Of a stretch of DNA of 46,984 bases, positions 12,692 to 46,984 are shown piece after piece. Under the pieces are notes generated by a model. It ran no database searches. It saw only the letters and a list, made by a program, of their open reading frames with translations, and was not told the origin of the DNA. The translations under genes and the position numbers were made by a program. Positions within the stretch are counted from its first letter, which is position 1, and every line of letters starts with the position of its first letter. This stretch comes from Bacillota bacterium (lineage in GTDB: Bacteria; Bacillota; Sulfobacillia; JAJZIM01), in assembly GCA_021810565.1 (NCBI GenBank), contig JAJZIM010000018.1, positions 1 through 46,984 on the forward strand, given 5' to 3'.

Positions 12692-12766
12692 TCCTCGATA
12701 GCTCAACGGTAGAGCACTCGGCTGTTAACCGAGGGGTTGTAGGTTCGAATCCTACTCGAGGAGCCA
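12692..12766 (+). tRNA. tRNA-Asn (GTT)
   Basis: A 75-base cloverleaf. Acceptor TCCTCGA (12692-12698) pairs with TCGAGGA (12756-12762), discriminator G, CCA encoded at 12764-12766. The anticodon stem is CTCGG/CCGAG with loop CTGTTAA, anticodon GTT at 12724-12726. T-arm contains GTTCGAAT. Confidence 0.96.
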
Positions 12767-12776
12767 AATATTTTTT

Positions 12777-12852
12777 GCGCCCGTAGCTCAATCGGTAGAG
12801 CATCCGGCTCATAACCGGCTGGTTCGGGGTTCGATACCCTGCGGGCGCACCA
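12777..12852 (+). tRNA. tRNA-Met (CAT), probably elongator
   Basis: A 76-base cloverleaf 10 bases after tRNA-Asn. Acceptor GCGCCCG (12777-12783) pairs with CGGGCGC (12842-12848), discriminator A, encoded CCA. Anticodon loop is CTCATAA. The anticodon stem lacks the three consecutive G-C pairs (GGG/CCC) of initiator tRNA and position 1-72 is paired, so it is not the initiator. A tRNA-Ile whose CAT anticodon is modified to read AUA cannot be excluded from sequence alone. The outermost anticodon-stem pair (T/C) is mismatched. Confidence 0.88.
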
Positions 12853-12859
12853 GCCTTGG

Positions 12860-12890
12860 GAGGCCGGCGGTAAGCGGCCTCTTGTTATTT
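12860..12890 (+). terminator. Terminator of the tRNA pair
   Basis: GAGGCCG (12860-12866) pairs with CGGCCTC (12875-12881) around an 8-base loop, followed by TTGTTATTT. Confidence 0.7.
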
Positions 12891-13192
12891 GGGTGAAATT
12901 AATATTATTGGCATTATTTTAGAATAACTCATGCGTAATGATGCAGATGGATACTAATGCCTACATGACGGCGTGGCGCTGCGGGTCTGCGGCCCAGTGC
13001 AAAGAGTTCGAGGTGCGGCGGCAAGCGGCCATGGCCGGCTTGGAGGTGGTGCTGCTGGGGATCCGGTGGGTATTGGATGAGGAATATGGGGCCAGGGAGT
13101 CTTCAGGCTGCGGTATCTGCAGGGTCCACCTCCTTGCTCGCCGTTGGATCCGGCTGGACTTTGACCGAGTCACGGGAGTGCCTGCGTTTGCC
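12891..13192. other. Intergenic region between tRNA units
   Basis: The first 40 bases are AT-rich, including the palindrome TTATT-TTAG-AATAA. The rest is GC-rich. A frame at 12938-13315 runs through the tRNA-Val promoter and the tRNA itself, so it is not a credible gene. Nothing else is recognised. Confidence 0.4.
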
Positions 13193-13221
13193 TTGACAAC
13201 GCCGGGTGGCCTGCGTATAAT
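13193..13221 (+). promoter_or_regulatory. Perfect consensus sigma-A promoter of tRNA-Val
   Basis: TTGACA (13193-13198), 17-base spacer, TATAAT (13216-13221): an exact match to consensus at both hexamers and spacing. The tRNA begins 12 bases after the -10 element. Confidence 0.95.
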
Positions 13222-13232
13222 GGCCCTGCGGC

Positions 13233-13307
13233 GGGCGGTTAGCTCAGCGGGAGAGCGCTTGACTCACATTCAAGAGGCCACAGGTTCGATCCCTGTACCG
13301 CCCACCA
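13233..13307 (+). tRNA. tRNA-Val (CAC)
   Basis: A 75-base cloverleaf. Acceptor GGGCGGT (13233-13239) pairs with ACCGCCC (13297-13303), discriminator A, CCA encoded. Anticodon stem CTTGA/TCAAG encloses CTCACAT, anticodon CAC at 13265-13267. Confidence 0.96.
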
Positions 13308-44810: not shown

Positions 44811-45431
44811 GTGCGCAGATTCCGGGCGGCGGTGCTGGCGGGTCTCATGGCCGCCGTGTTGGCCGGTTGCAGCAGCGACCTGTTGCCCGGGGCCTTGGCC
44901 CCGGTCTATCCGGGTCTCAAGGTGGGAATGGAGGCTCCGGCCAGCAACAACCTGGTGGTGGGGGAGCGGGTGACGCTCCACGGCAAGCCCCACGTGTTGC
45001 GCTGGTACGACACCAGCACCTCCGGGTCCCCCCTGGCGGCGCAGCTTCAGCAGGAGACGGTGCGCGAGGCCCTGACGCGCCATCAGTACATCTTCGTCCT
45101 GTTCGACGTGCCGGTGCATGAGACCAACGGCGCCTTGAACTTAGAGTACGCGCTGCACCTGCACCATCTTTTCGGCAAGAAGATCGCCGTCATCCTCATC
45201 GACCTGTGGGATGATCCCCAGGTGGCCCCCCAGTGGAACCTGAGCACCTCGGCCCACCACGCCGAGTTCCTGATCGGCCCCCACGGCCATATCCGCTATG
45301 CCTTCGTGGGCTTTTTCGAGGTGCAGCCGATGCAACAGCGCATCGAGGATCTGCTGCACCACCGTTACCGGGCGCTTTGGCAGGCCTCCCCGGCGACATT
45401 GCGCCTGCCCTGGAGGCGGCAGCCCCGTTGA
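44811..45431 (+). CDS. Thioredoxin-fold-like lipoprotein
   Basis: A 206-residue exported protein: basic start RRFRAA, hydrophobic stretch and lipobox LAGC (about residue 18), so it is lipid-anchored outside the membrane. The rest resembles a thioredoxin/SCO1-like fold in pattern (YIFVLFDVP..., KKIAVILIDLWDDP, EFLIGPHGHIRYAFVGF, where LIGPxGxIRYxFVG is typical), but it has no CxxC redox pair and has many histidines (LHLHHLFGKK, HHAEFL) instead. GTG 44811 is 7 bases after GGGGGGAGG. Its stop overlaps the start of the FGE-like gene, so the two proteins are probably made together. The fold assignment is tentative. Confidence 0.7.
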   Translation: MRRFRAAVLAGLMAAVLAGCSSDLLPGALAPVYPGLKVGMEAPASNNLVVGERVTLHGKPHVLRWYDTSTSGSPLAAQLQQETVREALTRHQYIFVLFDVPVHETNGALNLEYALHLHHLFGKKIAVILIDLWDDPQVAPQWNLSTSAHHAEFLIGPHGHIRYAFVGFFEVQPMQQRIEDLLHHRYRALWQASPATLRLPWRRQPR

Positions 45432-46309
45432 GCGGGCCCCAGGCGGTGCGGCCCGTGGTGCGCTGGGTGGCGCGCCACGGGGGGCGGTTGGCGGCCGCAG
45501 GGCTTTTCCTCCTGGTGGTGGGCGTCACCCTGCACTCGGTGTACCTGGCGGGCCGGGTGATGCGCTCCTTTGCCCATGGAGGACTGCCCGGAAGCCAAGC
45601 TTCACCCCGGACGGCGGCGCCGGGGTTGTCCCGCATGGTGTTTATCCCGGCGGGCAGCTTCGTCATGGGCACCAACGCGCCCGGGGCCAACTCCAACGAC
45701 GGTCCGGCCCACCGGGTGCACCTGTCCGCCTACTACATCGGTCGCTACCTGGTCACCGATCGCGAGTACGCGCGTTTCTTGAAAGCCACGGGACGACCGG
45801 CGCCGACCGGCTGGCGCCACGGCACCTATCCGCCCGGGGAGGGTGACTATCCGGTCACGGACGTGACCTGGTACGACGCCACGGCTTACGCCCGGTGGGC
45901 CGGCGATCGGCTGTGCAGCGAGGCCGAGTGGGAGCACGCGGCCCGGGGGCCCCAGGACGGACAGTATCCCTGGGGGAACCACTGGGTGCCGGGCCGCGCC
46001 AACGTGGAGTATGACGTGGGCCACCCCACCGCCGTGGGGACGTACCTCTCCGGCGCCAGCCCCTACGGCCTGTACGACATGGCGGGGAACGTCTGGGAAT
46101 GGACCTCCTCGCCCTTCACGCCCTACCCGGGCAACGACGGCAAGAACTGGACCTTCGGGCGCTGGAAAGGATACGTGGTTACCCGCGGCGGCTCCTTCAT
46201 GTCCGATTGGATGGACGCCACCAGTTGGCAGCGCAATCCGGTGCTGCCCTCCAAGGCCGCCGGGTACATCGGGTTTCGCCTATGTCGCAACGCCGCCGGC
46301 GGCAGCTAG
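45428..46309 (+). CDS. Membrane-anchored formylglycine-generating-enzyme-like protein
   Basis: A 293-residue protein with an N-terminal membrane anchor (about residues 20-43) and an FGE/SUMF1-type domain: FIPAGSFVMGTNA, VTDVTWYDATAYARWAGDRLCSEAEWEHAARG (key VTWxDAxAYxxWxGxRLxSEAEWExAARG), YDMAGNVWEWTSSPF, and GGSFMSDWMD ... IGFRLCR at the end. Classical FGEs activate sulfatases by converting Cys to formylglycine using copper and two cysteines; here only Cys in FRLCR and CSEAE are visible, so catalysis is uncertain. Many such domains are binding scaffolds. TTG 45428 overlaps the lipoprotein stop. Its stop shares a CTAG with the minus-strand gene. No sulfatase is nearby. Confidence 0.87.
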   Translation: MSGPQAVRPVVRWVARHGGRLAAAGLFLLVVGVTLHSVYLAGRVMRSFAHGGLPGSQASPRTAAPGLSRMVFIPAGSFVMGTNAPGANSNDGPAHRVHLSAYYIGRYLVTDREYARFLKATGRPAPTGWRHGTYPPGEGDYPVTDVTWYDATAYARWAGDRLCSEAEWEHAARGPQDGQYPWGNHWVPGRANVEYDVGHPTAVGTYLSGASPYGLYDMAGNVWEWTSSPFTPYPGNDGKNWTFGRWKGYVVTRGGSFMSDWMDATSWQRNPVLPSKAAGYIGFRLCRNAAGGS

Positions 46310-46437
46310 GGGACGAAGGTGTTGGTCCCCCAAGGATTGAGGGGGAAGGGCAGCAGGGTGACCACGGCCGCGCCCAGCACGAAAACCATCGCGACCACTA
46401 GGAGCAGAATGGTCCAAAAGCGCCGTTCGGGGCTCAC
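46306..46437 (-). CDS. 43-residue membrane peptide downstream of iscB
   Basis: A short frame reading MSPERRFWTILLLVVAMVFV then a continued hydrophobic helix and a tail ending NTFVP. It has one clear membrane segment with positively charged residues before it. The GTG start (46437) overlaps the iscB stop TGA as GTGA, and no separate ribosome site is seen, so it would depend on coupling. Its stop shares a CTAG with the FGE-like gene. No family is recognised. It may be a chance frame or a displaced gene end joined to iscB. Confidence 0.4.
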   Translation of the reverse strand: MSPERRFWTILLLVVAMVFVLGAAVVTLLPFPLNPWGTNTFVP

Positions 46438-46984
46438 AAAATCGCGGCCAGGAAGCCCACCCCTTCAGGGATGGGAGGAATGGCCGCTTCCCTCCTTCCG
46501 ATTTGCCAGCCGTTGTTGTGCTGCAGGAGCCGGAAGTGCCGCCAGGAGATCCCCTGGATCATGCGCTTCCCGGCGGCGTCCTTCAGGTCGAAGGATCCCG
46601 AAGAGCGCACGGCCACCGTGCCGCGCCAGGTACCCGCGTATCGGCCGGACGGCACCCGGACAACTGCCGCGTCCCCGGTCCGAAAGCCGTGGACCGACTT
46701 CGACCGCGAACGGTGACCTTTGGGAAAACCGTACCGGTCGACGTTCGCCATCCGCCGGTGCCCACGGCCCAGCGCCCTGAGCACGACCACCTTGCCGTTG
46801 GCGAAGGTCAGCCGCTCCGGGGTGGACGCTCCGACGCAGGCGGCGTCCAGACAGTGATCCTTCGGCAGGCCGAACCTGGTGCGGTTGTACTTCGTCCTGG
46901 CCCCGGAGCCCGCTTCCGTAGGCATACCCATGCCCTTCAGCCGGTGCCATACCGCCCACCGGGTGGCGTTCATCATGGCGGTGT
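46434..46984 (-). CDS. iscB: RNA-guided nuclease IscB, C-terminal part (5' truncated at window edge)
   Basis: The frame enters the window from the right edge and covers about the last 183 residues. TGSGARTKYNRTRFGLPKDH-like motif (visible as KYNRTRFGLPKDHCLDAACVG), then LGRGHRRMANVDRYGFPKGH and FRTGDAAVVRVPSGRYAGTWRGTVAVRSSGSFDL, are the hallmark C-terminal parts of IscB, including the last RuvC region (His-x-Asp type DHCLDA) and the TID/PLMP-like end. IscB is the ancestor of Cas9 and uses an omega RNA encoded 5' of it, which would lie beyond the right edge. The N-terminal PLMP, bridge helix, HNH and first RuvC parts are outside the window, so intactness cannot be judged. The end overlaps a small peptide gene. 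Confidence 0.85.
   Translation of the reverse strand, partial: TAMMNATRWAVWHRLKGMGMPTEAGSGARTKYNRTRFGLPKDHCLDAACVGASTPERLTFANGKVVVLRALGRGHRRMANVDRYGFPKGHRSRSKSVHGFRTGDAAVVRVPSGRYAGTWRGTVAVRSSGSFDLKDAAGKRMIQGISWRHFRLLQHNNGWQIGRREAAIPPIPEGVGFLAAIL

What the first reader, a model, noticed from the sequence alone, without database searches (positions are those of the whole stretch)
46434..46984. IscB-type RNA-guided nuclease at the right edge
The C-terminal motifs KYNRTRFGLPKDHCLDA, GHRRMxxVDRYGFPKGH and VPSGRYAGTWRGTVAVRSSGSF are seen directly and match the established IscB family (HNH/RuvC OMEGA nucleases). Thermophile-derived IscBs are of special interest, and the omega RNA should lie just right of the window (inference).
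Basis: partly seen in the sequence, partly recalled or inferred. Interest (0 to 1): 0.65.

Follow-up and report, generated by a model that had tools for sequence, protein, structure and literature searches.

The report
IscB RNA-guided nuclease transposon, multicopy
The right edge of the window holds the tail of a genuine IscB gene, an RNA-guided DNA-cutting enzyme carried by a small jumping gene present in about 16 copies in this bacterium; it is a typical member of a known family, with an unusually readable record of how it inserts next to GTGA sites.

Summary
Confirmed. Window 46434-46982 (-) is an uninterrupted 182-aa C-terminus of IscB (NCBIfam NF040563, 4e-12), cut only because the contig ends at 46984. 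The genome has about 16 copies, nearly all broken at contig ends. Together they give the whole element (~1.7 kb): left boundary GTCAGCCACCC = position 1 of Rfam HEARO (the IscB omega RNA; 85 and 83 bits in two copies, cutoff 83), ATG 314 nt further on, iscB ~463 aa with PLMP, bridge helix, RuvC I-III and HNH. All right ends stop at ...GTGA, followed by unrelated host DNA. GTGA belongs to the target: one copy splits korB from korC exactly at a stop/start overlap; relatives keep these genes adjacent. GTGA fits the NTGA TAM of the nearest solved TAM domain (DtIsrB). The element has no tnpA, but three tnpA copies elsewhere have a matching left end; guide tetranucleotide and cleavage site changed together (AAAG/TTAC versus GAAG/TCAC), as the IS608 pairing rule predicts. 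So: a new member of a known kind (IscB/HEARO transposon of IS200/IS605 type, probably mobilised in trans). Less usual: the iscB stop codon comes from the target GTGA, in several copies the start codon of the downstream gene.

The parts
46434..46982 (-). C-terminal 182 codons plus TGA stop of iscB (RuvC-III KDHCLDA, C-terminal TAM-interacting region), cut by the contig end
46842..46862 (-). RuvC-III motif KDHCLDA
46452..46475 (-). Subterminal hairpin of the element's right end, read on the + strand (tnpA orientation) as guide GAAG then CCCACCCC-TTCA-GGGATGGG; translated as part of iscB
46434..46437 (-). GTGA: retained target site and predicted TAM; supplies the iscB stop codon (TGA) and the GTG start of the next frame
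46306..46437 (-). 43-aa open frame (VSPERRFWTILLLVVAMVF...) starting at the GTG of the target site; possible host membrane peptide gene downstream of the insertion (no Pfam match)

Best explanation
This is one of about 16 copies of a ~1.7-kb IS200/IS605-type transposon carrying a HEARO omega RNA and IscB but no transposase. Inferred mechanism: an IS605-type TnpA acting in trans excises and inserts the element as single-stranded DNA next to TCAC (GTGA on the iscB strand), chosen by base pairing with the GAAG guide next to the end hairpin. The omega RNA carries host sequence from the left flank as its guide, so IscB with that RNA recognises flank sequence followed by the TAM GTGA, which is the empty site restored after excision, and cuts it, so that repair from an intact copy keeps or copies the element. 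Shown here: the protein family, the RNA family, both element ends, the GTGA target, the separate tnpA copies and the guide/cleavage-site match. Not shown: transcription, cleavage, TAM preference, transposition, mobilisation in trans.
For: IscB profile match and two 431-aa open sister frames over the curated cut-off. PLMP (HHKPLMPC), arginine-rich bridge helix, RuvC-I LDPG/ESK, RuvC-II VENIRFDTQ, HNH VDHVVPRSRGGT..SNL..C..CN and RuvC-III KDHCLDA all present in sister copies; Pfam RRXRR 1e-45 and HNH 1e-11. HEARO RF02033 begins at base 1 of the left end in 12 copies, over threshold in two complete ones, most others truncated by contig ends. 16 left ends and 15 right ends with sharp common boundaries and unrelated flanks. 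korB and korC ends pair across GTGA; relatives keep them adjacent, some with ATGA overlaps. Three tnpA left ends TTAC|AGAA...GAAAGCCCAC-hairpin resemble the iscB right end in reverse complement, alignment score 17 against a shuffle maximum of 7. IS608 pairs A16:T-3 and A17:T-4 (PMC5934647) become G:C and A:T here, and the other end (CATG/TGAC) also fits. Nearest fold of the C-terminus is DtIsrB (5.5e-6), then TbaIscB and HfmIscB; DtIsrB reads NTGA/TTGA (PMC9581776).
Against: The window copy has only its 3' 549 nt in the assembly, so its own catalytic domains, RNA and guide are unseen. No complete copy exists on a single contig; the element is a composite of copies. No element carries tnpA itself, and the right end of the tnpA element was not seen. 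C-terminal model confidence is modest overall (mean pLDDT 60.9), good only for residues ~101-150.
Confidence: 0.93

Rival explanations
1. The window copy is a dead 3' remnant, not a functional gene; only some sister copies are active.
For: Only the 3' part is visible; some right ends are decayed (C101 L028, C15 L038).
Against: 182 codons open, 94% identical to an open 431-aa sister; the truncation coincides with the contig end, as for the other copies.
Confidence: 0.15
2. The protein is an IsrB (HNH-less nickase) rather than an IscB.
For: The nearest TAM-domain fold is DtIsrB; the same genome also has an HNH-less relative at C58 (412 aa, L023).
Against: Sister copies have a complete HNH and match the IscB equivalog above its cut-off.
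Confidence: 0.03
3. Insertion next to GTGA at start codons is only survivorship: the element lands anywhere with GTGA and only harmless insertions remain.
For: Most other GTGA sites lie inside genes; 72 of 307 sampled GTGA sites begin an open frame of 180 codons or more by chance.
Against: Five of 15 right-end frames have a start codon supported by family profiles, against 17 of 307 start-like GTGA sites, about P 1e-3 by my binomial estimate; this does not separate targeting from selection.
Confidence: 0.6

Closest known systems
IscB / HEARO OMEGA systems (PMC9755519; Rfam RF02033; NCBIfam NF040563)
   Same: Protein domains, HEARO RNA 5' of the gene starting at the transposon end, usually no tnpA nearby
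   Different: The iscB frame runs through the right-end hairpin and takes its stop from the target GTGA; most sampled relatives stop before or inside the hairpin
DtIsrB (Desulfovirgula thermocuniculi; 8dmb; PMC9581776)
   Same: C-terminal TAM-interacting fold, NTGA-type TAM
   Different: IsrB lacks HNH; sister copies here have one
IS608 / IS200-IS605 single-strand transposons (PMC5934647)
   Same: Subterminal hairpins, guide tetranucleotide before the hairpin, target retained beside one end, guide/cleavage-site pairing rule
   Different: GAAG/TCAC instead of AAAG/TTAC; transposase not in the element
TbaIscB (9k30) and HfmIscB (9k2z)
   Same: Closest solved IscB proteins by sequence (4.7e-25, 9.7e-21)
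   Different: Only distant sequence similarity

Membership tests
IscB (OMEGA) | Match to the IscB profile | tested here: met
   NF040563: window fragment 4e-12; sister copies 324-329 bits against a cut-off of 175
IscB (OMEGA) | PLMP domain, bridge helix, RuvC I-III, HNH | tested here: met
   In sister copies; only RuvC-III and the C-terminal domain in the window copy
IscB (OMEGA) | Omega RNA (HEARO) immediately 5' at the transposon end | tested here: met
   RF02033 from base 1 of the left end, two copies over threshold; not visible for the window copy
IscB (OMEGA) | Conserved target motif (predicted TAM) beside the opposite end | tested here: met
   GTGA at 15 right ends; target origin supported by korB/korC. 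Recognition by the protein not tested
IscB (OMEGA) | RNA-guided DNA cleavage | not testable with these tools
   Needs biochemistry
IS200/IS605 type transposon | Subterminal hairpins with guide/cleavage-site pairing at both ends | tested here: met
IS200/IS605 type transposon | Y1 transposase TnpA in the element (autonomous member) | tested here: not met
   No tnpA between left end and iscB; three tnpA elements with a matching left end elsewhere. The element is therefore filed as IS200/IS605-type and non-autonomous only
IsrB | No HNH domain | tested here: not met
   HNH present in sister copies

The most novel reading that the evidence does not exclude
The element is adapted to invade operons at stop/start overlaps: its nuclease frame has been extended through the end hairpin so that the target GTGA acts at once as transposase target, TAM, iscB stop codon and start codon of the downstream host gene, which keeps translational coupling and makes insertions cheap.
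Probability: 0.3. Interest if true: 0.5.

Novelty: new member of a known kind. Interest (0 to 1): 0.3.

Why it matters
It adds an IscB family with about 16 natural left-flank guides and a readable GTGA target motif from one genome, and a case where the DNA guide of the transposase and its target site have changed together. If the start-codon idea holds, it would show how an RNA-guided transposon lowers its cost in operons.

Tried and rejected
Empty site of the window copy by DNA similarity in relatives: only one weak partial match in the same order, and it does not reach the insertion point. The IS200-like tnpA copies on C69, C22 and C34 were examined as mobilisers; the end hairpins were not found at C69/C22, and C34 gave only a weak self-symmetric match. 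HEARO copies in G011 do not lie next to obvious intact iscB genes and did not help the right-end analysis. No held paper was found describing a TAM-supplied iscB stop codon, but the main IscB papers are not in the library. A PDB sequence search with the window fragment alone gave only weak matches. RNAalifold on the copies added little covariation because they are too alike; the Rfam model is the evidence for structure.

Full report
Observation. The minus-strand frame 46982-46434 is open for 182 codons and ends in TGA; the quoted motifs are present. Pfam gives nothing for this fragment, but NCBIfam NF040563, RNA-guided endonuclease IscB, matches its first 50 residues to the last 50 positions of the model (E 4e-12). 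The window is the complete contig C1 of a 115-contig assembly, so the gene is cut by the contig end, not by mutation.

Sister copies. The right-end sequence recurs on many contigs of the same genome, almost always at contig ends, as expected for a repeat that breaks an assembly. Two copies, C30 and C114, give 431-aa open frames over the IscB cut-off and lack only the first ~34 residues; C58 and C46 supply the N-terminus. The composite protein is about 463 aa. All expected parts are seen: KPLMPC, bridge helix, RuvC-I, RuvC-II, HNH and RuvC-III. The nearest solved proteins are TbaIscB and HfmIscB.

Omega RNA. The left end is sharp in 16 copies, starting at GTCAGCCACCCACGGC after unrelated host DNA. 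Rfam HEARO starts exactly there; two complete copies pass the gathering score, and several others score lower, most of them cut by contig ends. The iscB ATG is 314 nt from the left boundary. The host sequence just before the boundary is the presumed guide, different in each copy (inference from how IscB systems work). The left partner of the window copy, and so its guide, is unknown.

Right end and target. Fifteen right ends finish at GTGA and then diverge. In several, the GTG begins the downstream host gene: profiles align from near their start for a 2-oxoacid oxidoreductase gamma subunit, NAD kinase, a diglucosyl diacylglycerol synthase-like protein, an MBL-fold hydrolase and a PilZ/ParA-type protein. 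One left flank carries the end of a 2-oxoacid oxidoreductase beta subunit whose frame would stop at that TGA; in relatives the beta and gamma genes are adjacent, in some with ATGA stop/start overlaps. GTGA therefore belongs to the target. The pairing of these two contig ends rests on operon order, not on a spanning read. Start-like GTGA sites make up 17 of 307 in sampled DNA of this genome, so five of 15 is about P 1e-3 by my own binomial estimate; selection against other insertions could explain it.

Transposition. The element has no transposase. Four Y1 transposase matches exist; one of them (C99, cut by a contig end) has two further 5' fragments, and all three have TTAC followed by an end that resembles the reverse complement of the iscB right end. 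IS608 chooses TTAC through A16:T-3 and A17:T-4 pairs with its AAAG guide (PMC5934647). Here AAAG/TTAC at the tnpA element and GAAG/TCAC at the iscB element both obey this, as does CATG/TGAC at the other iscB end. TCAC is the complement of GTGA, so transposase target and predicted TAM are the same site. DtIsrB, whose TAM domain is the best fold match, reads NTGA/TTGA through R323 and Q326 (PMC9581776); the window motif GKRMIQG has R and Q with the same spacing, and Q is invariant in relatives. The residue correspondence was not verified structurally.

Context. HEARO is found in 35 of 154 genomes of the class, often with 5-14 copies, so copy number is not exceptional. Novelty is that of a new family member. 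The TAM-supplied stop codon and the stop/start overlap are the less usual points; they may already have been described, as the main IscB papers are not held.

Noticed in passing
L023:1607-2845 (-) (G000 C58): A 412-aa HNH-less RRXRR protein with a HEARO match (64 bits) next to it, IsrB-like, in the same genome.
   Followed up: partly
L024:1457-3070 (-) (G000 C58): A 538-aa IscB-like RRXRR protein over the IscB cut-off (188 bits) but without an HNH Pfam match and without a detected HEARO.
   Followed up: partly
G011 copies, L114-L123: Ten HEARO matches in another genome of the class, several without an obvious intact iscB behind them, perhaps RNA-only derivatives.
   Followed up: no
L028 (G000 C101): A right end in which the sequence between hairpin and GTGA is changed (GGAGGAATGGCC instead of GGCTTCCTGGCC), a decayed or recombined copy.
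   Followed up: no
window 45233-46309 (+): Sulfatase-modifying-factor-like (FGE) protein next to the insertion (Pfam 1.9e-51).
   Followed up: no
window 12692-13307 (+): Three tRNA genes, Asn, Met and Val, close together.
   Followed up: no
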